Source: Diphasiastrum complanatum (lineage: Eukaryota; Streptophyta; Lycopodiopsida; Lycopodiales; Lycopodiaceae). From it: DNA of 64,000 nucleotides. The stretch covers positions 61,224,385-61,288,384 of the forward strand of contig CM055097.1 of the NCBI GenBank assembly GCA_029204225.1, given 5' to 3'. Below the pieces are notes generated by a model. It was not told the DNA's origin. It worked only from the letters and a program-made list of their open reading frames with translations, and made no database searches. A program made the position numbers and the translations under genes. Positions 4,431 to 33,930 of this stretch are shown here, piece by piece. Within the stretch, counting starts at the first letter, position 1. Each line of letters opens with the position of its first letter.

Positions 4431-4884
4431 ATTGAATGAATGAAGTTTATATCCACTTGCCAGAAGAATACTCAATCTTTGCATGTTGGCAGATATTGGA
4501 AACTTGTGCAGAGAGGTCAGTGAAATCTGTTCTATAAAGTTCTCGTCGATTTAACAATTTACATTTTCAGTTTGATACTGAACTCTTCTTTGTTCACAAA
4601 GTGTTACTCATTCATCATTATATGAAATTAAATCAGCAGACTGTAACGTGGAACAGTTTTTCCCAGGTGCATCCTTAAGCAAGAAACCTTAGCTGAGTCA
4701 AAAAATGTGATACACGAGAAAATTTGATGTCCCTCGGACCTTACAACAATAATTAAAGACAATGATGATTGGACCTATTAGTCTCCTCACCCTTTTGACT
4801 CCTCTTTGCTTTGTGTAAGGTCAAATATGAAACTCATTTCTCCTCAAGAATAGCTAGATCTTATGAGCAATTTGAATGAAGCAG

Positions 4885-4982
4885 TTAGGTCAAAGTGGCA
4901 ATGCATTCTATTTCAATCCGCGCATTTAAAGGTAATGCAGCAACTTGGTAAGTTGAACGAGCTGGTGCAGGAGCGGGAAAAT
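4885..4982 (-). CDS. RIDA: RidA exon 6 and stop
   Basis: Encodes FPAPAPARSTYQVAALPLN followed by ARIEIECIATLT and TAA at 4887-4885. Acceptor TTTTGACAG ends at 4983. It is 11.3 kb from exon 5 but completes the protein at the family's usual C-terminus. Confidence 0.93.
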
Positions 4983-5193
4983 CTGTCAAAAACCTCAGAC
5001 TTAATGCTCACTGATGACAAATACAGAGCTTTTCACTTCCATAGAGCATCTTTTGATGGCAGTCACTTTACATAAATCTTGATCATTAGAGTGCTTCAAA
5101 AGACCATTAACAGAGGAGCAACCCATTCAAATTTAAAAGCATTTCCTTTGAAACAGAGGGAAAACCAATCAGTGCACATGACGAGGATGACAA

Positions 5194-5272
<79 letters not shown>

Positions 5273-8200
5273 GTCCCAACCATCCCACTAAGTATAAAAT
5301 TCTTGACTATAATGGGATATACTCTTCAGCAATAACCTACGACCTACAAGATTTCGTTGATGATGGAGATATTTGGTTTTCTCCTGAAGCCACACGAGAA
5401 GTTCACGACTTTTTCTGGGTTTTACTTGAGAATCTGTATGCCGTGATGAGATACGTTCAGCAGGAGGCAGAGGTTCGTCAGCTGGATTCGCTTGTCTTTT
5501 TAGGGATCACTTATGTTCAGTTCTATGAATGGTTGGCCAAGATGAGATGGCAAAGTTTATTTAAACAACTTGGTTGGACATTGTACTAGCTAGTTAGGAA
5601 TCAGGAAATCTTCAGCTGACAGGACTGGTCCAATTACTACTTACGGGAAATATTGCATCTAGAGGAGTCTCATGAATTGGTCATATACAATGGCCTTTCC
5701 CAATGGTCTTCTTTAGGTGACTCAACATGTCATCCATGGGTTCACTATCTTTCATCCCACATATCTCAGATTTCACCTTCTCCCCCACCACTGCCTAACC
5801 ATTCCTCCCTCTGTTTCGACTTGGTTTGACATGTACCTCCACCCACAAGTAGCCTCCATCTTGATCATATGCCACGATATCCTTTTGGTTCTTCTTATGC
5901 TCCCTTATACCGAAATTCACTCCACTCCCTCCTATCTCATATGCCATATGATAACACATTAGACACACATGCCATTTACACCACTGCCTCCATTGCTTGC
6001 CCTACGAAACATAACGGTGCTCGAGATATTGAAGATCTTCAGCCCGAGCTTCTCATAAATGCAACTAATATCCTATCACCTATCATTGCCACTCCCCGTA
6101 ACATTGCAGTCACTATTGGCTTTCCTTCCTCTTGGTGCATCAACACCATAAACCCCATTCACAAAAATGGTGACCTCATGAGGCTGGAAAACTATCGCAC
6201 CATCATAATTGGACATGTTATGGCTAAGCTTTATGATTCTATTCTTTAGGCAAGAGTGAGCAAAGAGGCAGAGTCTCATCGGTTGCGTGCTATTGGACAA
6301 GCTGGGTTTCACAAGCATATCACTCCACCTTAGACCATATTCTTACCCCAAGTCACTCATTGAGAAGGTTCTATTTTAATAGAGGGGCTATATTCAATAT
6401 TGCTCCTTCATGGACTTCAAACGGGCAATTGATTCCATCCCTTGACATATGATGAGCCAGAGATTACAAGATCTTCTTTTTCTCAAGATATCATCTTAGC
6501 GGTCATGACACTTTATGAATGTGTCATTGGATGCTTTACCTCTAATGAGGGCACACTTGAGCAGACCATCAGCACGGTTGGGGTGAAGCAGGGCTGCTCA
6601 CTCTCACCTACACTCTTTGACCTTTACATTGGTGACCTGAGGGGTTCATTGTGTAGCATGGTGGCTACTGAAATTGTAGACTTGGGGACAATCTTATTTC
6701 TAATTTACTATACGCGGATGATGTGGTCCTCGTTTCTGTAACTCGAGAAGGATTGCAACATTGTATTGATGACTTACATAACTTTTGGCGAGACAGAGGT
6801 CTGGAAGTGAATGTAGTGCAGTCCAAGACCATGGTCTTCAATATATCTTCCAAATTAATGGAGCGCCAGATTCTTACCCTAGATGATCAACCTTTAGAGA
6901 TCATATTAGCGTATACAAACTGGGGAGTCTTGTTCTATAGTCCCATCTTTAGCCTGAGGTCAGCTACCACTTGTCGGCTTGGGAAGGGCCCTAGTAGTAG
7001 AATAGAGTACTTACTACTAGCTACAGATGTAACAGTGAAAAATGACAATTCTATTTCTTGAGGGGCTCTTGTAAGTCATCAATGAAGCTGTACTAGAAGT
7101 TGCTGAGTAGGCATATCACTTAATCCATTTGACCAACTCCAAAACTTTTGTATAAACTATCAGGCTAAAACTCAAGGCAATGATGCATCTGCCAAGCAAG
7201 ATCAACCAAGGGAAAAAAAAAATCCTTTCTCAAAGGTAAACCACTGAAGAGATAGGGCAGCTTCATCTGTAAGGACACACTGCTCTCTTCCTTTCTTTTT
7301 ATCAAGAGTAAGACCATGCATGTAGGTAATGGAATTTTCTCAAAACCATCATTAATGTGAGTCGTGATTTAATAATCAACATTGTCTCATTTACAAAGTT
7401 ACACTTGTTGTTATAAAGAACGTTCATATGAGACTTCTGAAGGGAAGCGCCTTATTGATCTTCTTTACAACTCCTCTTCTGATGCTTTCTAGCCTGAGTT
7501 TATCCCCCGAGCCCCACCTCCATTATTGAGAGATTTGTGTCGTTGGACTGAATATACCACATCACTCTACACCTTTTCCACAAATCCAATTGTGATATCT
7601 CCTCGTCCCTCTACCTTCTCCTTTTTCACCCCAGAGATGGTGTCTCTTGCCACGAAGAAGTTGAAAACCCATGGAGCGCAGGATAGTGATGACTTAGATG
7701 TCGAACTCCTGATTCATGCCACTGATATACTTGCACCCATTTTGGCCTCACTCCTTAATCAAGCTGTCATTTCTAGTTTTCCTTTGTCTTGGTGCACCAA
7801 TTGCACCATCCTTCAGACAACGTTTAGCAATGAGGCAAAGACATAGAGTTTATATGCCTTGGGTCATGGTGGTTTCTGTAGGAAATAGAAGCCTAAGGAT
7901 CCAGGATCTTAACTATTCAATCACACAAAGCATTCTCAAAAGAAAGAGAGAGATGGCTAGAAACCCTCTTGTAGAAACTCGTGGACAGCCAAGGAGAATG
8001 GTCAGTATTGCTTACAAAAGTGTCATATACAAATGGGATGCACACATATATATAGTCCAAGATGACTATCTAACTTCATGACTATTGGCTATCCAACTAC
8101 TTGACTATTGGCTTTCCAACTACTTGACTATTGACTATCCAACTTCCTATAAGTTACATAGAAAGAATGGTACCTCCAATATGTCAAGTTGGGGTACTTA

Positions 8201-11200
8201 ATGTCACAATTAGGCCTAGTGGACCCATGAGTCCCTACCAAGTTAATTTCATACTAACTTAGCTAACTCTAAGTTTAGTAGGCCTAATATAATAAATGAC
8301 CATGGTTACACAACTCTCGACCTTTTGGGTCAAAGTAACATATGGTAATGAAAGCAATTCCATTTACATTCCAACAGTTTCAAGACAGAATTTCGCTACA
8401 TTGTTCACACTTCGTGCTATCATTGAGGCGGCCAGGTCCAGACATGAGTTTACAACTGTTTTGTGGATTTCCGAAAAGCTTTTGACTCAGTCCCATGACA
8501 CATGCTCATCCAGAGATTGAGGGATCTTAGATTTTCTACTGATACCATATTGGCTGTCATGGCACTATACGAGCAGGTTTTGGGGATGTTTCAAATTGGA
8601 GGGTCACTCTAAGAGAGTTAGCAGTACCATTGAGGTGAACACTTTGTAATTGATGAGCTTGAGAAAGCCATCAACCCTGTCTTTTGGCATTACAAGAAAG
8701 TAATGAAGCTCTATGGAGATACACAAGAAGCTTATAGGGGTTTTGAATATGCTTTAAAAGACCTCAAAATTTGCATAAATTGCTCCTAAGCCTTTTAGCT
8801 ATGATGTGCAAAGCAATGTAACCGAAATTACAAGGTGAAGTATAATGGCACTTGTAATCCGACTCAACTCAACTTTTCCCACTACCAGCGACATTGTTCT
8901 CAAGTTAGGTTGATTATGAAATAAATCTGAATCTGACACGGGTATTTGCAAGCATATTAAGGACATACAAGGGCACCTAGCAGCTGGGCGCACTATTTCC
9001 CTTCGAAAGTGATGCTTCCTAATTAATTAAATTATGCATTAGGATTTCCTAATTGGGGACACATTTGATAGCTTCTTATGATGGAGATGTTTGGGCCATT
9101 TGCAGGAGAACTTAACTACATTGCTTTAAGGGCTTTGTCTATGATTGTATTTGGTGATCTTTGGTAAACTTTGAAGAAAATTGTTCGATGTTCACAATTA
9201 TAGTCTTTCTATGCTTAATGTGATGAAATATCTATGAATCTATTCATCACTTGGTGTTAGAGCACTTTTTTGAGTAGTTGAAAGGGTGCTAATTTTTTCT
9301 ACTTCTTTTTTTAGTCATTTATGCTCTCTATCAATTCTCTCTCTAGATAATTTTTTTCTCTTTGGCCACTTTTCCCTCTAGTCATTTTCTCTCTAGACCT
9401 AAATAAGACTTCTTATTCACGTAACAAAGTGTTTGTCACTTGATTGCATCTTAGCAGTGACCGGATTCAATGATCGCATCTTGGTAACAAAGCATTAGTC
9501 AACTAATTGTGTCTTAGCAGTGACCGGATTCAACGATGGGGTCTCTAAAATTTGGTATCAAAGCCATCGATCATTGTGTATAAGGTGCAATCGTTTCAAC
9601 TTAAATTTGGTTGGTTTAAACTTCTTGTTGGTGTGCTAGGACAGCTTAGTATTCAAGGTTTAATCGCTATGAACAACCTTGCTTTTCGTTCCGTTGAGAT
9701 CCGACATCGTTTGGATAGGTTTTGGGCCTTGTATACATGCTAAGGGGCTTGTTTTTTACCGTTTTTCTAGTTTTCTGGTAGTCATTAAAGCTGCAAAAGT
9801 TTTTAAAGCCATATAATAAAACTAGAAAGTTGGAACTAGCACTAAGAACTATCAAAAAACCTCTATTTTTTGACAGAAGTGAAAAACTGGCCATAAAGGC
9901 TATTTTTCGACCTTTTTTGAAGTTGGAATGCAAATTTTTTGGCAGTTTTTGAACCCCTTCCATCCTCCTTTCCTCAAGCCACCTACAAAACACAAAAAAA
10001 TTTACATCTAATTGACTCTCACAACCTCAACAAAGGAAAATTGAAATTTTCCTTCCACCTCTTCTCTCATGAACGTACAACTGTACCTACTCCCTCGTGA
10101 AGCCTAAGGATAAGCTTTAGGGGAGTTCTAGGAACTTCTTGGGGCCATAAAGGCTATGGGACTAAAGGAGGTGACTAGAGGTGATTGTGGCACTGACCCA
10201 AGTGACCCTTGGGTGAGAGGCATAGGGAGGGTGTTGGCCATGTGATTTGAGGGTAAGGTGGTGCCCATAAGGGTTGCCACTTGTCTTAGGGGCCATATGC
10301 TTACTAGGTGGCACCCATAAGGCCCACCACCTAGTAAGGCCAAAAGGGAAGGAAAATGGTGTGGGTGGGGGGGGGGGTGGTAAAGGCTCCACTCTCATCA
10401 TTGAGGAGCTTGTTTTGGCCTAGCTTTCTTGAGTAAAGCTCTCAAGCCTCCTAAATCATTTTATTACCAAGCTCTTGCTAGTTTTTCCTTCGACTTTACC
10501 TTAGTGCGCTACCATCTCCTCGGTTATCTCAGCCACCATTTCGGAAGAGAAATCTCGAGACCAAAAAGCGCACAGCATTAGAGTTCGCGGGATCCCGGAT
10601 ACACAGGATGCCTTGGCTGAAGCCAAACGCTTTCTCAACACCACAGATGGGTTAGATACCACATGGAGGACCACTAGAGATGCAGCCACACTCATCATCC
10701 GCTTCACTTCCCTAGAGAGTCGCCGAGATGCTTTGCGGTGCAGAGCTAAGCTATGTGGTACCACTGTCTACATGGATGACGACCTCACAGATATCCAAGT
10801 AGAGGAGAGTCGTAATGCCTTTCAGGCAGCCCGTGAGCCTGGCAGACGAGTCATTTATCGAGATGGACGAGTGCACTTTCTTGATAGCGCTCCTAGCAGC
10901 TCCCAGTGCTAGGGATTTGGGGTGCCTGGGGTTGGGAGCACCCCGGCGCCCCATCCACACCACTTTTAGGTTAGAGTGTGGAATTGTGTTGGCATACATT
11001 CATCTTCCACGGCAAGGGACCTTGTTGATTTTATCACAGAAAGAGATATATTATTCCTCATGGAGACACACGAGAGCCCGAAGCGAGGACTTCCTTCCTT
11101 TCCTGGATATAGATGGGACTCAGTATTCCGACGAGAGACTAGATCTGCCAGTGACCGAGGTTCAGGTGGGGTCGCCTGCTTGTACAGAGAGACTCTCCAT

Positions 11201-14200
11201 TCGGGTATTGACTTCATCCAACATGACGAGCAGGCCCGCTACATATGGACTCGCATCGTGGGTCAGGATATTGGTTTGGATAGAGATCTTTTTATTGCAG
11301 CATGTTACTTTCCACCAGAGTCCTCGTCTTTTGCGGAGGGTATTGGGTCTCCATATCAGGACCTCTCACCATATATTATGCGATTCTCAGAGCAAGGGCA
11401 TATTCTCCTCACAGGGGAATTTAATGCCCGGACATCTTCGAGACAGACAGAGCTCTTCAAAGCCTCTGATCAGCTGCGTGTTCGTGCCCTTGACAATGAT
11501 ATGCTTGGGGTTACCAAGACCTCCGCGGACAGTTTGGGACTTACTACTTCATACGGTGAGCACTTACTATAGTTTGGAGAGGCACATGAGCTAGCCATTT
11601 ATAATGGCTTACCCTGCTGGCCACATTCAGACAATTATACATGCCACCCTCATAGTGGAGGACTATCTCATGGGGTCACCATCCTTTGTACCCATAGTCT
11701 CTGACTTCCACGTTTCCCCCACCACCCTTTCTGATCACTCATTTCTCTCCTTCGATATCGGCCACCTCCCACCCACTCATTCATCTACACAACCCATGAT
11801 TACCCGAGCACCCACGTACACATTTGATCCCATTTACATGCCACTGTACCGGCAGTCCTTCGTTTCACTTTTACACTCCTTTCCTCATGACAATCCAGTC
11901 GACACCCAGGCTGCTTTTCTCACCACCTCTCTCCACACGGCTGCATCACTAACTCTCCCCATGAAACCCCATCCCAAAAAGACTCGACGCACACCTCAAC
12001 CATTGCACCCTCCATGGTACGATACCGAGTGTCGTTCACCAATCAGTAACCTATTCACGTATCCACACTCCACATCTACTTCGATCTTCCCGATGCTCCT
12101 ACCATCGTGTTCTCCGCCGTAATAAGCGTTCCTATGATGATTTTGAAGGGAAATGTCTTATTGACCTTCTTTTTAGTTTTTCTTCGGGCGCTTTTTGGCG
12201 TGAGTTCATTCCTCGCTCTCTACCACCCCTCCTGGAGGACCTCCGCATTTGGTCCCTACCGACTCACCTATCTCTATATCTCCACGACCATCTGAGTTCT
12301 CCTTCTTCACATCTGACATGGTACTTGCAGCCATTAAGAAGATGAAGTCCCACAAGGCTAGAGATATTGAAGACCTTGAGTCTGAACTCCTTTCCCATGC
12401 CTCGGACTTACTCGCTCCTACTATAGCCACCCTTCTTAATTCCGTAGTTGTTTCCGGTTTCCCATCATCCTAGCACTAACATTATCCACCCCATCCATAA
12501 GAATGGTGACCCCATGATTCCGAGTAACTACCGCACCGTCATGATTGGGCATGTCCTCACGAAACATTATGGTACCATTCTTCAGTCTGTTGTGAGCTCA
12601 GAGGCAGAGACTAGGAGACTACATACATGCTATGGGTCAGCAGGCAGGTTTTCGAGCCCATTATTCTACCACAGATCACATCTTCACATTGTGGGCCTTG
12701 ATTGAGGATATATATATATATATATATTTGTGAAATTAGAATATATCCAATTTCACAAATTTATATAGAGAAGGCTAAGCACAGGAGAGAGAGAGAGGGT
12801 TTACCGTTGTTTTGTGGACTTCAGGAAAGCCTTTGATTGAGGAGGCTAAGCACGGGAGAGAGAGAGAGAGAGAGTTTACTGTTGTTTTGTGGACTTCAGG
12901 AAAGCCTTTGATTATGTTCCTTGCTCATTGCTCATCCAGAGACTCCGCGACCTCGGCTTCTCCACCGACATCGTTCTTGCTGTGATGGCACTTTATGAGC
13001 ATGTCCTGGGATGTTTCCGGCATAGCAATGGCATATCCGATCACATTTGGAGCACTATTGGGGTGAAACAGGGTTGCTCCCTCTCACCAATCCTCTTTGG
13101 CTTGTATATTGATGAGTTGGAGAGAGTCATTACACAGTATGGTGGTGCTGGTTGCAGGCTTGGGGACATCTTGATTGCTATCCTCCTTTATGCTGATGAT
13201 GTGGTATTGGTCTCACCGACCAGAGAGGGTCTACAGCGACAGTTGGATTGCTTGCATGAGTTTTGACCAGATGGGGCCTAGGGGTGAACATTGGGAAGAC
13301 TAAGGTTATGGTCTTCAACACTTCTCGAGCATTCATGCAACAACAGGAGCTTACTTTGGGTGGATAGGTTCTAGAGGTGGTCCCTTCCTACACATACCTG
13401 GGGATACTTTTCTCAGGTCCTACTTTTAGCATGAGACAGGCCGCTACCACTTGATTGGGGAAGGGACATGCCTCCCTTGTTCAGCTAGAGAGATTTTGTT
13501 TCCGAAAGTCCATCCAGGATGCTCGCAGTAAGTGTCACCTCTTTGATACCATTGTCACCCCCACGGCTCTATATGCGGCAGAGGCATGGTGTACAGGTCT
13601 TCCCTCTTCACACTGGGCCAGTCGTTCACGACTATAGACCACTATGCTAGCTCAATTGATCCGTGCGAAGCCTTCTGTTCCACATGAGATTCTTCGGGCC
13701 GAGTTTGCAATTCCACCTATCCAGATCGAGGCAGCTCTTCAGCTCATTACCTATACACAAAGGATACAGGCGTTACCAGAGATAGACAGACGATACATAT
13801 AGACTGCACTATCCTCCTCACAACACTTCATGATTAGGGCTACAGATTATCATGGTTCTCTCACGCATCCCACCTCCTACTTGAGTCATTTGGTATCTCC
13901 ATCACAGAGCTTCCCTCAGACACCCATCAGTATATCAAATGATTCCTCTATCACGCATATCTAGAGCGGACTTGGCGTAACCAATTAGGGGTTAAGCCAA
14001 CTTTCTATCGGACACATTTCTTGGAGCTGGATGCATCAGGGACCCCGGTCATGCCACGCTACTTGGAGTCGGGACTATCACATTGCCTCATATTCACACT
14101 GGGACAGCTCAAGGTGTCTTCTCATCACTAGCTATTGAGACGGGGAGGTTCCATGGTATTCCGAGAGAGGAGCGGATTTGCCAGTTATGCTCTCTAGGTG

Positions 14201-14891
14201 AGGTGGAGTTTGAGGAGCACTATATTTTTAGATGCCCGATATACTATGAGATCAGAGGGCGATATCGTTGCCTGTTTCGAGACATGCCTACCAGTCTACG
14301 CTCCCTCACAGCCTATGAGGACCCATGATGTGTCGCTTTGTTGGTACGCGAGATGTTCATACTACAGAGAGATTTATACGGGACACCCCAGCATTTTACC
14401 TCACAACCACTAATTACTTCATTCTTCACTAGGCAGAGATCGCGTGATTTAGTGCCTGAGGATGAGGATTATGACGACGACGAGGATGATAGCCGCTCAC
14501 ATGCTCATAGAGATCAGAGATAGTGTACCTCCCACCATCACGTTACTACCAGGATCACCAGACATCCTACGCAGAGACATACTACTACACATGCTCATGC
14601 ACACAGACGACGCCGGCAGGCTCAAATGCTTACGATGTGGCTCGCATTACATCTTTTTACAGCATCAGCACAGCAGCGGCATCAGCATCATAGCCTTGAC
14701 ATCTTGACATAGATACAGATGATTATTATGCACACACACTCTCGCATACGTGTCTATTTTAGTTTTAGTTTGTCCTAGATGTTTTCTTTATTACAGTTTT
14801 GGAGACGTTTTATACGCTCCCATGGTTACCACATACTTGACATGTACTTCATTAGTCTTATATGCCTTTTAGCATGGAAAAGACATTAATA

Positions 14892-14979
<88 letters not shown>

Positions 14980-15159
14980 GGTACTGATAGGCTTCTCGTT
15001 TATTGCGCACATCTGGCATGACTATCTCAAAGCTACCTGAGGGATCTCATCAGTACATTCGAGGCTTTATTTATCGTGGCTATCTACAACACACATGTTT
15101 TCTATGCTCTCACATAGAGTATTTGGTCTTATATGCTTTTTAACATTCAAGGGCAATAA

Positions 15160-15226
<67 letters not shown>

Positions 15227-16222
15227 GACAATCGGCCATTGGAGATTGTTTCATCCTACACTTACTTAGGCATACTCTTTTCTAGTCCTATATTTAATAT
15301 GAGACAGGCAGCTTCTGGTATGCTTGGGAAGGGTCATGCTTACCTTGCTCAGCTAGAGAGATTCTGTTTCCGTAAGCTTATTCAAGATGCCTCGAGTAAG
15401 TGTCGTTTTTGACATCCTTGTTTCCCTCACTATGCTTTCACGTATGATATTAGCTAAGCCCTCAGTTTCGCACCTTTGAGCAGAGATATACACAGGCTGC
15501 TCTCATCTCATCCCAACGCTTACATAGTCAAGGCTATAAGTTAGCTTGGTTCTCTCAGGCCTCTCGCCTCCTAGACACACTTGGCATCTCTGTCACTGCC
15601 CTTCCCTCAAGTACCCATGATTACATCAGACCATTTACCTACAGAGCTTATCCTGATATGCTACCTATACGGATCCATGCTATACCACTTATGATACAAG
15701 AGATGCTTCTATTATGACGAGATCTCTTGCCTTCGCACTAGAGTACTCCAGACACAGCTTCATATCACCTCCTTTTTCTCCAAACGACAATCACGAGCCC
15801 CAGATTCAAGGATGATAACTCGACTTCCCACACAGCTCATAGTTGTGCGCCTCCCTGTGCTATCCTACAGTTAGACCTACTCGTCCTAACACAAAGGGAG
15901 GTCCCGCTCATATTCGATATCGGCCGCATATCCCAGTTATATTTCCTACTGCAGCTCGTACTACATCCTTCTTCAATAGCAATAGCAGCAGCATCCTCAT
16001 CACCACCACCTCCAGGACATGATCTGAGGCTTCTTACCATCATTCATAGCTAGTTCATGATTCATACCTATGTAGTTTCTTTATCATTGGTATTTGTACC
16101 TGGATTTACATTACACGCATTTTTCTTTTACGTACTCGGGGTCGTTTCCATACGCTCCCATTTGATCCACACATCTAATATGTACTTATTCATCTTATTT
16201 GCCTTTTGGCATGGAAAATACA

Positions 16223-16281
<59 letters not shown>

Positions 16282-16382
16282 AACCAGAAAAATATACGTA
16301 CATTTGCCATAAATTTCATTGACTTTCTTAAAGTCAGCAAGATCTGCTAACCTGCCACATTTTACCGTCAAATGTTAATAGC

Positions 16383-16415
<33 letters not shown>

Positions 16416-19400
16416 CATATTGCAAAAAAAAAAAACAAAGCTTCTCATGAGACTTTATAGCGTAGAATAGAGATGGAGAAAAAGCTTCTCCAAATGTTTC
16501 AAAATAAAACAGGGATAACAGTTACATGATCGTTGTTTTCACGACTGAGCTATAGCTTGCACCACCAGCTTTCAGGATTTCACCAATGTTCTTTAAAATC
16601 TGCATACACAACTTTCACGGACACCCATGGGGTCAAAAGCCACAGTTGAAAAAGTTTAGATGAACAAGAAGATGCTGAAGAACTATCCACATTGCTTACA
16701 GATGTGGCTACTTGTAAAAACTACAAAGAATTGAACCAAAGATAAACACGAACCTGCTCAGTCTGTTCTTCCACAGTCTCTGAAACAAATTGTCCAGTCT
16801 GAAAAAAATCATCTTTAGGTGTACAATTGATGGTAAGATATAGAATAAAAACTGATGAACTTTTCAGTTCTTCGTGCGTTTGTATAGGTGAGCGCTAAAA
16901 AAAGGTTTAAAACAAAGGCAGGCAAAAAAATTTTACAAGAAGTACATTTGCTATAATAAATAGAAACAAGCTGCATAGCAATTTATCCACTTGCCTCCGG
17001 AACAAGGCCCAAAACACCTGACACAAAAAGCAGGTTGTTCGCTTTGATCGCCTGTGAGTATGGCCCCAAGGCTGCTGGTGCTTTGTCTGTCACAACTGCA
17101 TCTTTCTCTACAAAGATTCAGCACAACAGAACAAGTCAATGACATTTGAAGCCAACAAAGAGATTAGTACTTCTTGCAACTTTATAGGAATCAAAGATGT
17201 TAAGCCATGTACATTTTTTATTGCAGAACCCCTGGAATGTGGTAAACAAACATTGGTACCAATGCCTGGTTCATTAATTCTTCTCCATAAAGCTCACAAC
17301 TGAAACTGCTAAAAGCACAAAATCAAATGAAGGATGTCCCACTGTACTAACAGATGAGATCAAGACAGATTTACTTCCAATATGAGCACAAAGTAGACCA
17401 ATTTCAAGACCTAAATGTATTTTGAAGTAAACTTGCAATAACAAAGGCGCAAGGCAATCACGATCACTAGTACTACATACCTACAGTCTACACTTGCAAA
17501 CTATTTATCGAGTTACATAAAGGTATTTGGGACCTTAGATGCCAACAATCTAAAAACATCAAAAATGTTTCATGGACCTTTTTGAAACGCCTTTTTGAAA
17601 AGGGTTTGAAACAGCAAAGAATCGACGAAACAGTTTCAAGCTTTTTTTTTTAGGGACTTTTTTTCTAGCATTCTATTCTAGCAAAAACAAGTGCTTTTTT
17701 AGTGTTTCAAATTTAAATTGCAATGTACATTATAATCAATCAACGATCAATCTTGAACCCAACTCCCGAGTCCCACCTATTGTCATGATTCATATCATAC
17801 TTGCAAGGTCCATTCCGGAACGCGTCCCGGGAATGCGTTCCAGGATTTTGGCCCGGACGTTTTTTTTTTCGATATGGGTGTCAAAGAACAGCTCTTCTGA
17901 TGGGGAATTTCATGGTAAATTTTTTTTTGTGCTATAGGAGCCTATAGATCCCCGATAATTCCTAGGTATTGCTGGTTCACTGATCATGATGCATGGATTC
18001 AATGATTCACGGATTCACTGATTCACGGGACTTGGAAGATAAAAGATATCAAAAGATTTTTGCATCTTGTCTCCTTTATGGTAGCCAACCCTTTGAAATG
18101 GGGTTAAGTTAGACTTTTATGGCTCACATTTCCTGGAGTCAGATGTTATTGGTGTACCGGTATTACCTCGGTACCTAGATAGTGGTCGCTCACATTGCTT
18201 GCGATTCGCATTGGGTCAGCTTCGTGTTTCGTCACATCAGCTATATGAAGAGACAGGACATTTTCAGGGCATTCCATATGAGAGTAGGATCTACCAGTTA
18301 TATACTTTAGACAAGGTGGAGTCTGAAAAGCACTTTGTCTTTAGGTGTCTTGTTTACTATGAGATCAGGATGGTACCATTGTCTATTCCCTGATTCCCTA
18401 GTCACACTACATTCTCTTACTTCCTATTATGATCCACATTGTGTGGCTGGGAAAGTTCCTACAACATAAGTTGTATTCTAGTTCAAAATGTATGTTTCTA
18501 TGCTTGGTTAGGGTTGCCTTTAGAAGTTCATGAAGTTCGAGTGGCACACTTACATTTAGGCAAAAAACAGTCCCGTTTCGAAACAGTTCAAACCTGCCTT
18601 CTTTTTTTTCCATTTCAAAAAAAAATCTGATTCGAACGGTCCATCCGAATCGGACCGCTTGGAAACGGCGATTCTTTGAGCGAATCGCAATTCGAAGAAA
18701 CTACGCTTGTAGTAGTGTGACCCCTACTATTGACTAGCTTGCCATGCAGAGAAGGTTCGTGGACATACTCTAGGTCCCTTGGGTGCAAAAGGCATTTGTC
18801 CCTCTACTCTGTATGTCTCTCTGGTTGAACAACTCCCTCTCTCTCATAAGCAATTGTTTCTTTTGCCCTGGAAGTCCCTACACCCGAAGCATCTAACGCA
18901 GGCCTACAGAGCTCTACACCTAATGGAGAAGCTTTAGAGGGGCCCGCTACTTCTGAAATAGGCCCAAAAGGCCCTGCCTATGATGGTGACGGTTCTAATG
19001 GTCTAGAGAGCCCCACGAACATACTTGTGACAAGTGATACATTGGCGAAATGTCATGAACCACTGCAGAACAGTTTGTCAAGCCACGCATAGGAGGTTTG
19101 TGCGCCTACCTGCCTGCACATAGCAACTAAAATCGCCAAGGTTGCTTTATAGCCTTCACAAGATGCAAAAAAATTACCAGCCTATAAATTTATCAGTGAT
19201 TGTTCTTCCCTCTCTCTGCAACCACCAAAGTGGTCATTAAGAGCCCCCAATCTCTTTCTCCCTGTCACTACCTTTTGTGTCGAGCCCTCATACATCAAAA
19301 TTGGACCTCTATAGGTTGTTTTCCAACAACATTAGTAAAAGTGCATAGGAGAAGTGGGCCCTGATCAAGCCCCTTCCAAAAAAATCCAATTTTTTGAGCA

Positions 19401-22400
19401 TTCTAGAATCTATAATATGAAACCATCTCATTCCCAAAAAGTTGATGGTCTGGAACATATTCTGAAGCAACTAAGATAGATACTTATAAGGTGCTAACTT
19501 ATAAGAGTGGACCAAGATCCAAGTTAGGGAGCTTCGAGACCTCCCTCAACACCAAAGATGGCAAATGAGACTACTTGATTTTGTAATCAAAGCAATGGCC
19601 CCATAAGTTCAAGAGTAATGCTCTTGTCTACCAACTCTTGAGCCTATTAATTCCTCCTCTCGAGTTTATTTGAAATTCTTCATTCCCTATTTTTCATCCT
19701 TTAGACCCTTCTAAAAAAATTTGATTGGTATAAAAGGGGTTGAAGACTCTCATTAGTTAGTTGATCGACCTTTGAATCTTAAACTCTTTCTAGGGGAGTT
19801 CCATTTTTGGATGTCTTACTAGAAGATTTGTCTCATTGACTTTTACTATTTAAAGATTACTTTATGATTGTTATTTGTTGCTTTCATACTTCATTTCATA
19901 GCTACATGTTCCAAATGTTTTGGCTCTAAATATTATGTTTTGTACATATGGACATGAATGTGATTTTTTTTTCTTATTGATTAAAAACCTAAATCTACTA
20001 GATATTAAAGATGAACACTCATCTTATCAAATGGCCACCAATGAAGGGAGAAGGGTTATTCACAAATATTTCATTTGTTGTTAACGACTTTGCAACCAAT
20101 GCTAGATCATCGTGCCAAGGGTGGTTTCACACTACCAGTGAGTCCCTTTGCTAGATCCTTTCACTTGCCACCCATTTTTTGAATTTTGGCAAGTGAGTTA
20201 ACGAGCAATGGACCACCCCTCTTTCACATTTGGTTCGTGAGTGTCAATGTTTCAGGGTCCCATTTCGTACGTCGTTTGAAACGTGTTTGAAACGGGAGGT
20301 CCAGGTTTGAAATGGGAAAAATATTCTGGGTTTAGACATGTCATAGAAAGACTAGTACTAAGTAGATACATCCAATTTCATTTTCTATTTCCAACTTAGT
20401 GGCTTTAGTGCTTTTGTAATTTGTGATCACTGATAAGTCAAAAATTAAGAAGTCTAAAACTCATGGAGCTCTAAGAGTGAGAAATTGTTCTGAAACAAGA
20501 TAGCAGGTACATGATTAATGAAAGCGAGACACCTAGTATTCGAACCTTAGAATTTGGATTTTTTTCCAAGGCATTATGAAGGAAAGAAATGCAATTCGAA
20601 ACGGGTCTGTTTCGAATGAGACGTTTCAAATGCGTTGCTATGTTCGAAACGCATTTCGATGAAACATTGGTAAGTGTTAAATGAAGGGCCACAATATGAT
20701 TGGCCCATTTGAATCTTGACATACGATTGGTCCATTTTATTTAAGTTCTTGTGTTTTGAAAGGCAAGTATGAAGCTTTTCATGTTAAAAGGTTGAAGGGT
20801 GCTATAAGGTTTTTTTTCAAGCAATCACCTTTCAACTGGAAAGGTCAAAATTGAAATGCATTTCATTGAAAGGAATATTGGTAGTGAAGGGTTGAGAAGA
20901 CTTAAAATGCAGGCCAACATGCCAGGGGCAACTCAATGTGCCAGGCAACATTGCCTAGCCCAAAAAATGGTTTTGAGTTGCCCCTTTGTGGCAGTGGGTC
21001 CCTGCCATGTCATCTGCCACATAGTGGCAAGAGCATGTTAAATTGAAAGAGTGGGAGGCCACCAATGGGAGAGCTCTATTTTAAATTTTGGACTTGCCAG
21101 GCATGTAGTGTGAAATGGGCCCAAGAATGACTATATGTTCAACCTTTGCCATTACCTTCCATTTTGTGTTCTTTTTTTGTTTGGTAGCATTCTATGGTTT
21201 TTGCTAGTTTTTCAAAAAGTGTTGATGCAAATACCTGTGCGGGTTTTTTTGGGCAGCACACATCATTCATTACCTACCCATCAATGATAGTACGTCCGTT
21301 TTATGTTTAGAGCCATTCTTCATTCATCTCATTTGTGCTCGCATTAGGTTGTGTTTTTAGAGTTTTTAGGCCACAAGGTCATGTGCTACACTAGCATTAA
21401 GAGTTTAGGGTGGATTAGTGACAATTTATGACCAATTTAGACACCATGGTTGTACTTGGCTTTAAGGTCTAGGAATTGATGGCTTCTAGACTATCTTTTA
21501 GTGTTTTAGGGTAATATAGGCCTATTCTTTAAGGTCATTGCCTCTTTCGAGTTGGTAGGGCTTGTAGATAAGGGGTTTTTCAGCTCCTCTATTTCAATAT
21601 TGTTGGAGACTTGTGCCAAGGGACAAATTTAGGCTCTAGGAGGAGGTGAAGTTGATTGACACCAAGTTCAGCCACTATGGCAACTTGGGTGCTAGTAGGC
21701 GCTGACATTGTCACTTTTGCGGCCAGGAATTTTCTAGCACTTTAAATGGACCTGATGTAATTAATCAATAGCTTGGGAGTCTAAATCGAATAATGAGGCC
21801 CCAAGTACCAAAGGATATCAATAATGGCCTAATTACACGTCCATAACTAACTTTTTTGGTCATCTTCCAAGGATGTTCAGGAAAAACATATCACTAAGGG
21901 TCATTAATATCATGTATTGAATAACATTGAAAAGGTCTTCTCTTGAATAACCATATGCTTAGGGGCCAATGTACGTGCAATCCTTTTCAAATCAAAGACT
22001 TTTTTTTGTTGTTGCAACTGTGTGTGAAGACAACTACCATGACATGATAACGAAGTGGGTATCAGCTGTAGCTAGACCAAATTCAATCCACAGATTGTAC
22101 AAAGCACAATATATGGCCACCTTTCAAGGTCGCACTTGTTCATGGAAGCAATATTAAAACCAAGTGTGTTCGCAGAGACGATCAAGACCCTCTACCACTC
22201 TTTCCGTAACTTTTGTTTTCACGCATTTAAATCAGAGCTGTAGATTTCATACGCTTCAATCGGCTGATTGTCACATTGTGTTATATTCATCTCAAATGCA
22301 TATCCTCATATTACAAAGAATTCGTGCACCTATATGATTCATTTCTGGCTTCTATCACAGTTGATCGAATGGTAGGAATGTTATCATCTGCAGATGTTTA

Positions 22401-22756
22401 CATACCGCAAAACATTCAATCAACAAACGCAGCAAAAGAGACGAAACATATGTGCAAGCCCATTGTAAAATCACAGCCTAGCATTGCAATGTGAAACAAT
22501 ATTATCATAGCAACTCACTTGCTGCCTCTACCACACCCTGTGATAAAGATCTCGAAGCAAACAGAAGTCTATGCCCTCCTTTCCCCGATCCCTTCAAAAT
22601 TGCATTTCCAAGGCTCATACAGCAAAACCCAGCTCCACAAGAAAGCAACAGGCCTTGAGACATGCCACATATATCCCTGAAAGATGAAGAAGACCCAGCT
22701 ATAGCTCGTGCCATCGCTGCGGATGCCCCCGTCATCATGAGATGGGCAGCTGTCAT
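4885..22756 (-). CDS. RIDA: RidA family deaminase, plastid-type, six exons
   Basis: RidA hydrolyses reactive enamine/imine intermediates released by PLP enzymes such as threonine dehydratase; the plant enzyme acts in plastids. Exons on the minus strand: 22756-22519, 17107-16995, 16798-16754, 16599-16526, 16351-16302, 4982-4885 (238+113+45+74+50+98 = 618 nt, 205 aa plus TAA). All joins keep frame, and the joined protein follows plant RidA without gaps: KAPAALGPYSQAIKANN (exon 2), VEEQTEQ (exon 3), LKNIGEILKAGG and VVKTTIM (exon 4), LADLADFKKVNEIY (exon 5), PARSTYQVAALPLNARIEIE (exon 6, with the conserved Arg used for substrate carboxylate binding in the family). About 80 N-terminal residues are Ser/Ala-rich and poor in acidic residues, fitting a transit peptide. 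Introns are 5411, 196, 154, 174 and 11319 bp; intron 2 is GC-AG, the rest GT-AG. No disabling change is seen. Family and exon calls are firm; expression and localisation are inferred. Confidence 0.93.
5197..5270. repeat. (TC)37 microsatellite
   Basis: Pure TC dinucleotide tract of 74 bp in RidA intron 5. Unlike the tracts at 14.9-16.3 kb I cannot see a LINE 3' end before it. Confidence 0.98.
5272..5589 (+). other. ATG-less open frame, unknown
   Basis: An uninterrupted frame follows the TC tract and stops at TAG 5587-5589. It includes KYKILDYNGIYSS, DLQDFVDDGDIWFSPEA and LGITYVQFYEWLAKMRWQSL. There is no start codon and it is antisense to RidA. About 100 codons without a stop and with protein-like composition suggest a fragment of a coding exon or a LINE ORF; I do not recognise the family. 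Confidence 0.3.
5640..6990 (+). mobile_element. LINE fragment A (L1-like, endonuclease end to RT)
   Basis: Aligns in order with the longer LINE at 10.5-15.0 kb. It runs from the end of the endonuclease (5650-5800), through RT N-terminal text ARDIEDLQPELLINATNIL and IHKNGD..LENYRTIIIGH, then GVKQGCSLSPTLFDLYIGDL (6580-6640), YADDVVLV near 6713-6736 one frame over, and the thumb region to about 6990. Several frameshifts, stops and deletions. Antisense to RidA within intron 5. No 3' UTR or tail is present. Confidence 0.75.
6991..7419. other. Intergenic/intronic DNA, nothing recognised
   Basis: Part of RidA intron 5 between two LINE fragments. No long frame, repeat or known motif seen apart from a short A run near 7216. 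Confidence 0.4.
7420..7876 (+). mobile_element. LINE fragment B, left part (RT N-terminus)
   Basis: Frame 7526-7846 matches the start of the LINE RT region: FSFFTPEMVSLATKKLKTHG, DLDVELLIHATDILAPILAS, then FPLSWCTN. It is interrupted at 7876 by a solo LTR and resumes at 8377 at the homologous LINE position. Antisense to RidA. Confidence 0.7.
7877..8376. mobile_element. Solo LTR, 500 bp, with GTTTC target duplication
   Basis: Starts TGTAGGAAAT and ends ATTCCAACA, with the same 5-bp word GTTTC at 7872-7876 and 8377-8381. Removing it joins the LINE reading on each side at the homologous point of the full LINE (12.63 kb). It contains a TATATATA run at 8048 and three near copies of a 27-bp unit (TTGACTATTGGCTATCCAAC) at 8065-8147. 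The 5-bp duplication and TG...CA ends are typical of LTR retrotransposons; no internal region remains. Confidence 0.85.
8377..8650 (+). mobile_element. LINE fragment B, right part (RT core)
   Basis: Continues LINE fragment B after the solo LTR. Across frames it reads TLRAIIEAARSRHEFTT, then the equivalents of FRKAFDSVPHD, LIQRLRDLRFSTDTILAVMA and LYEQVLG. It then decays before the GVKQGCS motif. Confidence 0.7.
8651..10502. other. RidA intron 5 DNA with a possible LTR/primer-site relic
   Basis: No gene recognised. At 9553-9565 the plus strand reads TGGTATCAAAGCC, close to the primer site complementary to initiator-Met tRNA. Before it is a 26-bp duplicated word (CTTAGCAGTGACCGGATTCA, about 9451 and 9511), suggesting the end of an old LTR, but I cannot find matching ends. 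A hairpin with 12-bp arms (CTTACTAGGTGG / CCACCTAGTAAG) is at 10300-10311 and 10327-10338. A G-run lies at 10366-10377. Confidence 0.35.
10503..10912 (+). pseudogene. LINE-1-like ORF1 fragment
   Basis: Open frame after a stop at 10500-10502, with no ATG near its left edge, ending at TAG 10910-10912. It reads SIRVRGIPDTQDALAEAKRF, LIIRFTSLESRRDALRCRAK and TTVYMDDDLTDIQVEESRNA. The order RVRGIP, then RF..RRDALR, then YMDDDLT resembles the RRM-containing ORF1 protein of L1-type LINEs, an RNA-binding chaperone. The N-terminal coiled-coil part is missing. It directly precedes the endonuclease of the same element. Confidence 0.6.
12710..12915. repeat. Palindromic AT insertion plus 71-bp tandem duplication in LINE RT
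   Basis: A (TA)n run (12710-12726) is followed by perfect 11-bp arms TTTGTGAAATT (12727-12737) and AATTTCACAAA (12749-12759). Next, a block of about 71 bp carrying the FRKAFD codons is present twice (about 12771-12841 and 12842-12915). The other LINE copies have neither feature. Confidence 0.75.
14895..14977. repeat. (CT)n tract, 83 bp, LINE 3' tail
   Basis: Starts directly after the LINE 3' UTR text ATATGCCTTTTAGCATGGAA...AATAAAG, which recurs before two other CT tracts. Confidence 0.95.
14978..15224 (+). mobile_element. LINE 3' fragment C with (TC)n tail
   Basis: A short LINE C-terminal piece (14978-15060, similar to 15540-15630) is joined to a 3' UTR with TCTTATATGCTTTTTAACATT near 15128, ending in (TC)31 at 15163-15224. 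Plus strand, antisense to RidA. Confidence 0.65.
15225..16277 (+). mobile_element. LINE fragment D (RT thumb to (TC)n tail)
   Basis: Begins in the RT thumb (LEIVSSYTYLGILFSSPIFN, LGKGHAYLAQLERFCFRK), matching 13370-13540 of the full LINE. It continues through a broken C-terminal region and 3' UTR (ACGCTCCCAT then TTTGCCTTTTGGCATGG) and ends in (TC)n at 16226-16277. The tail stops 24 bp before the RidA exon 5 donor. Confidence 0.75.
16302..16351 (-). CDS. RIDA: RidA exon 5
   Basis: Encodes LADLADFKKVNEIYGK and starts with the G that completes the split Met codon. Acceptor GTGGCAG, donor GTACGT at 16301. Only 24 bp separate this exon from a LINE (TC)n tail. Confidence 0.93.
16383..16411. repeat. 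(CT)14 tract in RidA intron 4
   Basis: Short CT run inside the 174-bp intron 4, read as GA in the RidA direction, between donor and acceptor. Confidence 0.95.
16526..16599 (-). CDS. RIDA: RidA exon 4
   Basis: Encodes ILKNIGEILKAGGASYSS and VVKTTIM. Acceptor TATGCAG, donor GTAACT. The final ATG codon is split AT|G across intron 4. Confidence 0.93.
16754..16798 (-). CDS. RIDA: RidA exon 3
   Basis: Fifteen codons (TGQFVSETVEEQTEQ) between a TTTTTTTCAG acceptor and a GTTCGT donor. Too short for ORF scanning, but matches the RidA core in order and frame. Confidence 0.93.
16995..17107 (-). CDS. RIDA: RidA exon 2
   Basis: Encodes the family signature around GPYSQAIKANN and LLFVSGVLGLVPE. The acceptor is TTTGTAG ending at 17108. 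The donor is GCAAGT at 16994-16989; a GT donor three bases further in would break the frame with exon 3. Confidence 0.93.
17108..22518. other. RidA intron 1
   Basis: 5.4-kb intron bounded by GTGAGT and TTTGTAG on the minus strand. It holds a LINE 3' fragment (18085-18450) and several GTTTCGAAAC / TTTGAAACG-rich patches (17570-17640, 17810-17850, 18570-18710, 20255-20320, 20590-20665). Otherwise no gene or repeat is recognised. Confidence 0.6.
18085..18450 (+). mobile_element. LINE C-terminal fragment E
   Basis: Matches the C-terminal part of the 10.9-15.0 kb LINE: GQLRVSSHQLYEETGHFQGI, then the knuckle region with both first Cys replaced (IYQLYTLDKVESEKHFVFRC). Lies in RidA intron 1, again antisense to the gene, with no tail preserved. 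Confidence 0.7.
22519..22756 (-). CDS. RIDA: RidA exon 1 (transit peptide)
   Basis: Begins MTAAHLMMTGASAAMARAIA and ends after one base of codon 80, with donor GTGAGT at 22518. The open frame runs a few codons past the donor to a stop in the intron; those last residues are not protein. The content is Ser/Ala/Gly-rich with few acidic residues, as in plastid-targeting sequences. Confidence 0.88.
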
Positions 22757-28233: not shown

Positions 28234-28888
28234 TATGAAAAATACAGATCCTAAGTGGATCTAAACTCCAAAATCATTGGCTTGAATGCTTGCACTCCAA
28301 ACTACATAAGCTAGGAATTGGCAACACATTCTATGCTACCTAGAATGCAAAGAACTTGATCAAAAAGCATTTATCACAAATGGAAACTTCCATAAACATC
28401 AAGTGCGGCCCAAAATAGCATTATACAGTCCATAATACATCAGCCTACCACTTTTGGAAAGCACCTAAGATCATACACAATAGCTTGAAGACAATACACA
28501 CAACAATGCTCTCAATGGAGGAAGAAACAATGACAATGATCTATTGATCTCAATGAAGCATACAAAAGGTTTCTCCAACCTGTTCTCCACGACTTCCCTA
28601 CTATTTATGGATGAGGAAGATGACTCTCTCTCCTCTCTCTAGAAGGTACTTGACCCTAGATATTCCCTATATAGGAAAAATAGCTAAAAATGGCTTATAT
28701 GACCAAAATACATCAAAATGGTCTCATTTTGAAGGGTATGAAGTTTGACACTTCATCATACTGAAAAAATACAGTAAATAAAAACATTGTGGCCTGGTTC
28801 ACACGTGCAAAACTCCAGAACCAAAACTATTTACAATTTTAGCCAATTTAGGCCTCAAACTAGCTAGGAAATGTTGACAATTTTCACA
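28234..28888 (-). repeat. 3' LTR of nested copia
   Basis: 655 bp, matching 33931-34585. Its outer end reads ...TTTCATA on the minus strand instead of TTTCACA, one transition in the conserved terminus. The stop codon of the pol frame lies in its first bases. Confidence 0.95.
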
Positions 28889-31067: not shown

Positions 31068-31087
31068 CTCCCTCTTAATCCCATGTG

Positions 31088-32758
31088 CTATACAAAAGTC
31101 TTTGAACCTATTTGAGGTGTATTCCCCTCCACTTCATCCTTACTTTTAAGAAGATAGATCCAAGTATACCTACTAAAGTCATCAATGAAAGTTGCATACA
31201 TCTTTGCCCCACCATTGCTAGTTGTACTAGAAGAATGAATATCAGAATGCACAAGTTGAAAAGCTTCTTTAGATCTAGAAGTAGATCTAGAATAAGCAAG
31301 TCTATGAGATTTGGACAAGGCACAATGTTCACAAACACTATTGTTTGCAACAAGACTTTTAGGGAGACCAAGAACAAGCTCTTTCTTTGCCATTACCTCC
31401 AAAGATTTGAAGTTGGGATGGCCCAACCTCTTGTGCCAAACTTCTTGGTTTGTCAATTGCTCCCTAGCCATACATCCTTCATGATTAGAGATCACACATG
31501 CATCAAGCTTGAAAAGTTTACCATGCCTCCTACCTTGAGCAATCAAGGATCCACATTTACTTATCAAACATGCATCTCCAATGAACTCCACATCAAGTCC
31601 TTTGTCAATCATTTGACTTACACTAAGCAAATTCTTAGTGATTGAAGGAATGTACAAAACATTTTCAAGATTTGCTTTCCTATTTGTTGAAAGGGAAATA
31701 GGAATAGTGCCTATGCCTTTGATGTCACATTGACCATCATTTGCAGTGTAGATGATGTTACCTTCTCCCTCATAAGACAATAAGGATGTAAAGTATTCCT
31801 TATGTCTTGTCATGTGAGATGAGGCTCCACTATCAATCCACCAAGGATCATTATCATCTATGTTGGCTAACAAACTTGAAGTCATAACAAGTGATTCACA
31901 TGTGTTATGTTCTTCCTCATCTATTGTAAGATTTCCTTGCCTCTCTCCTTGCTCTCTTTTCTTCTTATAACATTCATTTGCAAAATGACCTTTTATCCCA
32001 CAATAAAAGCACTTGAACTTTGACTTATTGTTCTTAGTAGAAGAGGAAGAGGAAGAGTGATCATCATGATCAAAGTTACCACCTTTGGACCATTTCCCTT
32101 TGCCTTTACCTTTGCCCTTGAATTTGCCTTTTGTGAAGAAAGCCTCTTCACCTCCACCTTGCAAGGATGCACCATCAAGCTTTGATTGCAACCTATGTTC
32201 TTCAGCCAATAAGATTTCTTGCAAGTCAACCACACTTGGCAAGACTCTTTGAATGGCAAAACTTTGCACAAGGTTAGCATGTTCATTTAGCAAACCATTC
32301 AACATAACTTGGACTATTTCACCATCTTTTATGTTCTCATCAATGCATGCTAAATCATCACTTAGGGACTTAACTCTCAAGATAAATGCATGAGCACTTT
32401 CACCCTCTCTTTGCCTACTAGAAAATATTTGTCTCCTTAGGGTCAATACCCTAGATGTGGACTTTGATTCAAAGAGCTTCTTTAAGGCATTCCATGCCTC
32501 ACTTGCACTTTGACACTTTCCAACTTCCTTGAGAAGTTCATTTGTAACATTCATTTTAATGATATGAAGAGCCCTTTTGGCCTTCTTATCAAACCTTTGT
32601 TGCTCTTGAAGTGTGAGAGGTCTCTCTTCAATTTCTGCAACTATGTCCATGAGTTCATTCAACTCAAGTAAGGACTCCATCCTCACTTTCCAAGTAGAGT
32701 AGTTTGATGAACTCAACCTTTCACTAGACTCTAGCATGATCCCACCATTGGAAGCCAT
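31088..32758 (-). CDS. Copia gag-protease-integrase N-terminus
   Basis: 556-codon frame from ATG 32758. Gag (UBN2-type) residues 1-230, zinc knuckle CFYCGIKGHFANEC at 250-263, aspartic protease DSGASSHM at 309-316, pre-integrase HHCC zinc site (H442, H447, C476, C479), and integrase start with catalytic Asp506 in LVHSDI. After DDFSRYTWIYLLKSKDEV the frame shifts into 14 foreign residues and a stop. The normal continuation (GGEYTSNRFKDFC) is readable in another frame right after, so about 80-90 bp, including the second catalytic Asp, has been lost. Confidence 0.93.
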   Translation of the reverse strand: MASNGGIMLESSERLSSSNYSTWKVRMESLLELNELMDIVAEIEERPLTLQEQQRFDKKAKRALHIIKMNVTNELLKEVGKCQSASEAWNALKKLFESKSTSRVLTLRRQIFSSRQREGESAHAFILRVKSLSDDLACIDENIKDGEIVQVMLNGLLNEHANLVQSFAIQRVLPSVVDLQEILLAEEHRLQSKLDGASLQGGGEEAFFTKGKFKGKGKGKGKWSKGGNFDHDDHSSSSSSTKNNKSKFKCFYCGIKGHFANECYKKKREQGERQGNLTIDEEEHNTCESLVMTSSLLANIDDNDPWWIDSGASSHMTRHKEYFTSLLSYEGEGNIIYTANDGQCDIKGIGTIPISLSTNRKANLENVLYIPSITKNLLSVSQMIDKGLDVEFIGDACLISKCGSLIAQGRRHGKLFKLDACVISNHEGCMAREQLTNQEVWHKRLGHPNFKSLEVMAKKELVLGLPKSLVANNSVCEHCALSKSHRLAYSRSTSRSKEAFQLVHSDIHSSSTTSNGGAKMYATFIDDFSRYTWIYLLKSKDEVEGNTPQIGSKTFV

Positions 32759-33918: not shown

Positions 33919-33930
33919 GCTCTGATACCA
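33919..33930 (-). other. Primer binding site, initiator-Met tRNA
   Basis: Minus strand reads TGGTATCAGAGC immediately after the 5' LTR, complementary to the 3' end of initiator methionine tRNA, the usual copia primer in plants. Confidence 0.9.

What the first reader, a model, noticed from the sequence alone, without database searches (positions are those of the whole stretch)
4885..22756. A complete RidA gene hidden in 18 kb of transposons
Six short exons (45-238 nt) scattered over 17.9 kb join to one intact 205-codon RidA with correct splice sites and phases. Five of the six have no useful long ORF, so ORF-based annotation would label the region repeat only.
Basis: partly seen in the sequence, partly recalled or inferred. 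Interest (0 to 1): 0.72.

Follow-up and report, generated by a model that had tools for sequence, protein, structure and literature searches.

The report
RidA gene that left a circRNA fossil
The window holds an ordinary, intact plant RidA housekeeping gene stretched over 18 kb by long introns rich in transposon remains, and elsewhere in the same genome one retroelement carries a DNA copy of that gene's four middle exons joined in the order that a circular RNA would give.

Summary
One of five introns is GC-AG. Its closest solved relative is Arabidopsis chloroplast RidA (104 of 120 domain residues identical). "18 kb of transposons" is half shown: LINE relics span at least 6.7 kb of intron 5 (11.3 kb); in intron 1 (5.4 kb) I recognised about 0.34 kb. 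A second "copy" 28 Mb away is most likely an unmerged contig overlap. A diverged paralogue on C4 has the same exon phases.

The unexpected result is on C23. A dispersed element there carries exactly 282 nt of RidA, intronless, ordered (exon 2 tail)-3-4-5|2, with exon 5 joined to exon 2 at the splice borders: one lap of a back-spliced circle of exons 2-5, the exons between the two giant introns. Two related element copies lack the insert. Since capture the element copy gained 22 amino-acid-changing substitutions and the gene none in those exons. circRNA-derived pseudogenes are known in mammals; my paper searches surfaced no plant case. Transcripts, the circle itself and the capture route remain unshown.

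The parts
22519..22756 (-). RidA exon 1 (ATG, N-terminal extension, codons 1-79 plus 1 nt), possibly a plastid transit peptide
   Evidence: C4 paralogue exon 1 homologous; in the first 78 aa 2 D+E, 6 K+R, 26 S+T+A
17108..22518 (-). intron 1, 5411 bp, GT-AG; LINE relic recognised only at 18100-18436
16995..17107 (-). RidA exon 2, 113 nt (first exon of the inferred circle)
16799..16994 (-). intron 2, 196 bp, GC-AG (GT-AG in the C4 paralogue)
16754..16798 (-). RidA exon 3, 45 nt
16526..16599 (-). RidA exon 4, 74 nt
16302..16351 (-). RidA exon 5, 50 nt (last exon of the inferred circle; in the C23 copy its end is joined to the start of exon 2)
16302..17107 (-). exons 2-5 cluster: source of the inferred 282-nt back-spliced circle found as DNA on C23
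4983..16301 (-). intron 5, 11319 bp, GT-AG; LINE relics (on the + strand) span at least 6672 bp
4885..4982 (-). RidA exon 6, 98 nt, stop TAA
10970..14976 (+). longest LINE relic in intron 5: Exo_endo_phos (10970-11569), RVT_1 (12850-13263), 3' end GCATGGAAAAGACATTAATAAAG followed by (CT)n at 14895-14976; its 5' limit was not determined

Best explanation
Shown by sequence: the window holds a complete six-exon gene for a plant RidA protein with an N-terminal extension. Exons 2-5 sit within 0.8 kb between a 5.4 kb and an 11.3 kb intron; intron 5 contains LINE insertions. Also shown: another locus (C23, about 41387175-41387468) carries exactly 282 nt closest to this gene, with all introns removed and exon 5 joined to exon 2 exactly at the splice borders, inside a dispersed element. 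Related element copies on C5 lack the insert. Inferred: the pre-mRNA was back-spliced (exon 5 donor to exon 2 acceptor) into a circular RNA of exons 2-5; a reverse transcriptase copied that circle for exactly one lap, entering and leaving at the same place, perhaps guided by a short similarity (RidA GTTCCGGAGAC, target GTATTCGGAGA or GTATCCGGA); the cDNA became part of the element, which later gave at least one further lineage (C58 group). The gene itself kept working under purifying selection. Inferred by homology: the protein is imported into plastids and hydrolyses reactive enamines such as 2-aminoacrylate.
For: Gene. Paralogue with the same six exons and phases. Constraint: pN/pS 0.134 in the domain; of 26 substitutions between gene and C23 insert, 22 non-synonymous + 1 synonymous fall on the insert branch, 0 + 2 on the gene branch, 1 non-synonymous is ambiguous; the insert has 2 TAG stops in its matched frame, one 1-nt deletion and one 1-nt insertion. 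Circle: CDS 342-520 is followed directly by CDS 239-353 on C23; the 282-nt insert aligns as one lap. Of 190,653 possible back-jumps within the CDS, 21 have both ends at exon borders. Empty site: with the 282 nt taken out, the C23 flanks align through the site with both C5 relatives. Uniqueness: of 12 matches to the insert in the genome only C23 carries the exon 5|2 junction; 3 carry exons (2 tail)-3-4; the other 8 are the gene's own exons, 4 in the window and 4 in the overlapping contig. None of the 16 matches is a linear retrocopy running through all exons. Long flanking introns are associated with circRNAs in cotton, without enrichment of inverted complements (PMC13008959, passages); a review says the latter for plants generally (PMC7248317, passages). 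This gene fits: giant flanking introns, no inverted complementarity found.
Against: No RNA data: neither the linear transcript nor the circle was seen. There is only one full-circle copy; three sibling contigs lack the junction. The two empty-site relatives lie 7.3 kb apart on C5 and are 91-97% alike, so they are hardly independent. The similarity at the entry point is short: the longest exact word shared with each C5 relative is 6 nt, and 46 of 278 windows of the circle reach 6 nt, so by itself it is not significant. [quoted passage not shown] The carrier's class rests on nearby gag/RT frames, some on the opposite strand and possibly of other elements, with the C5 gag matches below Pfam's cut-off, and no LTR pair was found within 10 kb. 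Polarity at synonymous sites is weak because C4 is near saturation (pS 0.694 in the domain).
Confidence: 0.82

Rival explanations
1. Only the gene is of note: an ordinary plant RidA with large introns, and the C23 fragment is a DNA-level rearrangement (tandem duplication and truncation) of a normal linear retrocopy.
For: Retrocopies decay, and the C58 group shows that the fragment was later truncated in one lineage.
Against: The jump falls exactly on an exon 3' end and an exon 5' start (21 of 190,653 back-jumps would); the insert length equals the circle exactly (282 nt); exons 1 and 6 are absent; none of the 16 matches is a linear retrocopy.
Confidence: 0.08
2. Scrambled linear RNA (trans-splicing or exon repetition between two RidA pre-mRNAs) was reverse-transcribed instead of a circle.
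For: It would give the same exon 5|exon 2 junction.
Against: It gives no reason why the insert starts and ends at the same point of exon 2 after exactly one lap.
Confidence: 0.08
3. A sub-route of the best explanation: the circle was captured by microhomology-primed repair or target-primed reverse transcription into an already inserted element, not by template switching during the element's own replication.
For: The same one-lap product is expected; most circRFWD2 pseudogenes (39 of 42) lack poly(A) and their route is described as unknown (PMC5345220, passages).
Against: The insert is shared by two element lineages with partly different flanks, so the element spread, or was duplicated, after capture; this does not exclude the route.
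Confidence: 0.4
4. The window gene is a decayed copy and the C4 paralogue is the working RidA.
For: C4 is intact with six exons, five GT-AG introns and 214 aa.
Against: The window gene is intact and closer to Arabidopsis RidA (104 against 93 of 120), with no amino-acid change assigned to it in exons 2-5 since capture.
Confidence: 0.04

Closest known systems
Arabidopsis thaliana chloroplast RidA (PDB 5hp7/5hp8)
   Same: Same family, 104 of 120 domain residues identical
   Different: The Arabidopsis N-terminus, as recalled, gave no tblastn match to exon 1; genomic span 17.9 kb and one GC-AG intron here. Arabidopsis intron positions were not available.
circRNA-derived pseudogenes of mammals (circRFWD2, circSATB1; Dong et al. 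2016, not held, seen only through passages of the review PMC5345220)
   Same: Genomic copy holding a back-splice order of exons (exon 6-exon 2 for circRFWD2; exon 5-exon 2 here); no poly(A) tract at the insert end
   Different: Here it is in a plant, inside a dispersed element, as exactly one lap, with an empty site visible in related element copies
Gene capture by plant LTR retrotransposons through abnormal template switching (review PMC13317346, passages)
   Same: Sequence from another RNA inside a retroelement
   Different: The template here is inferred to be circular; that review's main text holds the word circRNA 0 times

Membership tests
RidA (Rid family, TIGR00004 / PF01042) | Full-length match over the curated cut-off | tested here: met
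   166.7 bits vs 106.25; 139.5 vs 27.3
RidA (Rid family, TIGR00004 / PF01042) | Conserved Arg in PARSTYQ and Glu in IEIEC of the active site (roles recalled, from no call) | tested here: met
   R182, E199 present
RidA (Rid family, TIGR00004 / PF01042) | Imine/enamine deaminase activity | not testable with these tools
   needs enzyme assay
Plastid-targeted plant RidA | N-terminal transit peptide | tested here: inconclusive
   in the first 78 residues 2 D+E, 6 K+R, 26 S+T+A; no targeting predictor available
circRNA-derived pseudogene (C23 insert) | Intronless copy of several exons | tested here: met
   exons 3-4-5 and 2 joined without introns
circRNA-derived pseudogene (C23 insert) | Back-splice junction exactly at exon borders | tested here: met
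   CDS 520|239
circRNA-derived pseudogene (C23 insert) | No poly(A) tract at the 3' end of the insert | tested here: met
   insert passes directly into element sequence
circRNA-derived pseudogene (C23 insert) | Parental gene makes the circRNA | not testable with these tools
   no RNA data
LTR retrotransposon (carrier) | gag/RT open frames next to the carrier sequence | tested here: inconclusive
   RVT_1 E 2.5e-18 and gag below cut-off on C5; RVT_1 and RNase H on C58, gag on C23 opposite strand, gag on C58 opposite strand
LTR retrotransposon (carrier) | Pair of direct LTRs | tested here: inconclusive
   none within the 10 kb of C23 or C58; related segments are repeated in direct orientation about 7.3-7.6 kb apart on C5
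L1-type LINE with poly(A) tail (LINE in intron 5) | Endonuclease and RT domains | tested here: met
   Exo_endo_phos E 3.3e-6, RVT_1 E 5.6e-17
L1-type LINE with poly(A) tail (LINE in intron 5) | Poly(A) 3' tail | tested here: not met
   0 of 20 sampled copies of its 3' end have A8 within 20 nt; 20 of 20 have 16 or more C/T in the first 20 nt

The most novel reading that the evidence does not exclude
Plant retroelements capture host genes from circular RNAs: a reverse transcriptase that strays onto a circRNA can run one full lap and step back at the same place, inserting exactly one circle with no further target duplication and no poly(A). The C23 insert would be a first plant example as far as my searches went, and its one-lap signature would be a way to find past circRNAs in any genome.
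Probability: 0.4. Interest if true: 0.75.

Novelty: new variant of a known kind. Interest (0 to 1): 0.55.

Why it matters
The gene alone is ordinary. The C23 copy matters because circRNA-derived pseudogenes were, in what I could read, described for mouse and human, with an unknown insertion route. Here the empty site, the exact one-lap length and the carrier are visible, which makes a specific capture mechanism testable by scanning plant genomes. The captured copy also serves as an internal yardstick showing that the host gene is constrained. The likely assembly overlap means that this gene could be counted twice in an annotation.

Tried and rejected
Second RidA copy on C6 at 32.89-32.92 Mb: not taken as a real duplication. 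Window 1-25465 matches it with 1 mismatch and 28 gap runs, 23 of which my (loose) script rule marked as lying in simple runs; the block ends at a 10 kb N gap there and begins at a 10 kb N gap here, a dovetail of two contig ends. A real near-identical repeat that broke the assembly is not formally excluded.

Inverted repeats in introns 1 and 5 driving back-splicing: not found. The best inverted match is 24 nt at 83%, E 0.63; there is one direct 272-column repeat at 67%; 5 of 30 and 4 of 30 shuffles reach the duplex energies.

Exon 3 continuing after the second exon 2 in the C23 insert: first suspected, then rejected because those bases match the C5 empty site. The alignment also counted that right-hand stretch; its substitution counts were replaced (only the sites shared by C23 and C58 are taken). 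My first C4 gene model had two off-by-one exon ends and was replaced; no number is used.

Species: not identified. Contig lengths seen run from C1 101.6 Mb through C23 42.5 Mb to C24 10.9 Mb and C25 0.39 Mb. That it is a plant is inferred from the RidA match. Intron positions in other plants: no named plant genome was available.

Paper searches for a plant circRNA-derived pseudogene; none surfaced, but each listing showed only 6-20 papers and many papers are not in that library. Searches returned mostly unrelated papers. Four listed papers that hold both the term circRNA-derived and plant matter were looked into by passage: in three it stands only in a reference to Dong et al. 2016, in one it concerns polypeptides.
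Full report
CHECK. They lie on the minus strand: 22756-22519, 17107-16995, 16798-16754, 16599-16526, 16351-16302 and 4982-4885. The result is 618 nt, 205 codons and one terminal stop. Four introns are GT-AG and intron 2 (196 bp) is GC-AG. The protein passes the cut-offs of PF01042 and TIGR00004, and its best solved relative is Arabidopsis chloroplast RidA (E 4.6e-65), identical at 104 of 120 domain residues.

SURROUNDINGS. Intron 5 (11.3 kb) holds a LINE relic with endonuclease and reverse transcriptase domains (10970-11569, 12850-13263) whose 3' end lies at 14895, and further pieces within 5412-6785, 7391-8594 and 15323-15409, together 6672 of 11319 bp, all on the + strand. LINE-like ends also precede the (CT)n arrays at 15164 and 16227. 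In intron 1 (5.4 kb) only 18100-18436 was recognisable. The phrase "18 kb of transposons" is thus shown for over half of intron 5 and unproven for most of intron 1.

COPIES IN THE GENOME. The window is C6:61224385-61288384 of a 1.74 Gb genome. A protein search gave 16 matches: 4 in the window gene, 4 in a C6 twin at 32.895-32.913 Mb, 4 on C4, 1 on C23, and 1 each on C2009, C58 and C2841. The C6 twin is nearly the same DNA: 25.5 kb with 1 mismatch and 28 gap runs, ending at an N gap there and starting at an N gap here. I read this as two overlapping contig ends placed 28 Mb apart. The C4 locus (66593801-66602116) is a paralogue with six exons, the same phases, five GT-AG introns, 214 aa, an intron 5 of 518 bp and an intron 1 of 6352 bp. 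pN/pS between the two is 0.134 in the domain and 0.42 in the N-terminal part; synonymous sites are near saturation. A family search also found a more distant Rid-type match on C5:58003668-58003889.

THE C23 COPY. At C23 the RidA sequence runs from CDS 342 to 520 and then directly from CDS 239 to 353. CDS 520 is the last base of exon 5 and CDS 239 the first base of exon 2. The insert is 282 nt, the sum of exons 2-5 (113+45+74+50). It aligns with one lap of that circle with 26 substitutions, one 1-nt deletion and one 1-nt insertion. Two related element copies on C5 lack the insert, and the C23 flanks with the insert taken out align through the site with both; the two C5 copies are 91-97% alike and so hardly independent. 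The C58, C2009 and C2841 copies share the left border, and C58 shares three substitutions (CDS 347, 355, 380) with C23, but their RidA match stops at CDS 470, the end of exon 4, and they resume in the element. C5 has the missing flank, so this is a later deletion; because a TAG word follows the border on both sides, its exact breakpoint is uncertain. These three contigs are 97.2-99.8% alike over the long compared stretches and may be one locus. In the genome 1 of 12 matches to the insert carries the exon 5|2 junction.

WHY A CIRCLE. Intron removal shows an RNA source. Of 190,653 possible back-jumps in the CDS, 21 have both ends at exon borders. Entry and exit at the same point after exactly one lap is what a closed template gives. 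Exons 2-5 are also the exons between the two longest introns. [quoted passage not shown] I found no inverted complementarity either. The cotton study also reports fewer repeats in such introns than in random ones, which does not fit intron 5. The short similarity at the entry point is suggestive only (6 nt exact with each relative; 46 of 278 windows do as well).

CONSTRAINT. With C4 as outgroup, the insert branch has 22 non-synonymous and 1 synonymous changes, the gene branch 0 and 2, and 1 non-synonymous site is ambiguous. Random change would be 77% non-synonymous. The captured copy has drifted while the gene has not. The synonymous assignments are weak because C4 is so far away.

CARRIER. 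The stretch 4500-6200 of the C23 locus has at least 55 partial matches in the genome, several per copy (40 of 354 candidates scored). Near related segments lie RT and gag matches, partly weak and partly on the other strand. A TATA-like stretch lies about 0.9 kb upstream of the insert on C23 and C58 (read by eye). I take the carrier to be an LTR retrotransposon with the insert in its transcribed leader; no LTR pair was found, so this is an inference.

KNOWN AND NEW. circRNA-derived pseudogenes are reported for mouse and human, with 39 of 42 circRFWD2-related pseudogenes lacking poly(A) and an unknown insertion route (PMC5345220, passages; the original paper was not held). A 2026 review of gene capture by plant elements describes abnormal template switching and contains the word circRNA 0 times (PMC13317346, passages). 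My searches surfaced no plant case in the listings shown; passages of four candidates held none. I file the gene as an ordinary RidA and the C23 insert as a new variant of a known kind.

SIDE RESULT. The LINE's 3' end motif occurs 6602 times in the genome with at most one mismatch (3234 forward, 3368 reverse; reversed control 0). Of the first 20 listed copies, all on C1 and fetched with 60 bases downstream, 20 have at least 16 C/T in the next 20 bases, 16 hold (CT)5 within 60 bases, 11 hold TCTCTCTC and 0 hold A8 within 20 bases. This LINE family thus appears to carry a pyrimidine microsatellite tail instead of poly(A); a count over all copies did not complete.

Noticed in passing
window 14862-14976; also before the arrays at 15164 and 16227, and L028:3024: LINE family whose 3' end runs into (CT)n, (CTTT)n or (CTT)n instead of poly(A); 6602 genomic copies of the 23-nt end motif at up to 1 mismatch, 20 of 20 sampled copies with pyrimidine-rich tails. 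A possible seeder of CT microsatellites in this genome.
   Followed up: partly
C6:32890334-32915803 versus window 1-25465: 25.5 kb identical but for 1 mismatch and 28 small gap runs, each side abutting a 10 kb N gap: probably a contig overlap left unmerged and placed 28 Mb apart in the scaffold.
   Followed up: yes
C58, C2009, C2841 (L038, L037, L039): The captured RidA piece ends at the exon 4 3' border (CDS 470) before a deletion; whether that is coincidence is unclear.
   Followed up: partly
C5:58003668-58003889 (L001): A more distant Rid-family (PF01042) match, E 2.4e-8.
   Followed up: no
window about 28236-34585, minus strand: Copia-type element (RVT_2 E 4.5e-78, gag and integrase-type domains); 99.2-99.7% identical pieces lie upstream of the C4 RidA paralogue.
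   Followed up: no
window 50976-52698, minus strand: Weak Helitron-like and PIF1 helicase matches, possible Helitron relic.
   Followed up: no
window 43830-45590, plus strand: 587-aa stop-to-stop frame with no Pfam match at E 0.01.
   Followed up: no
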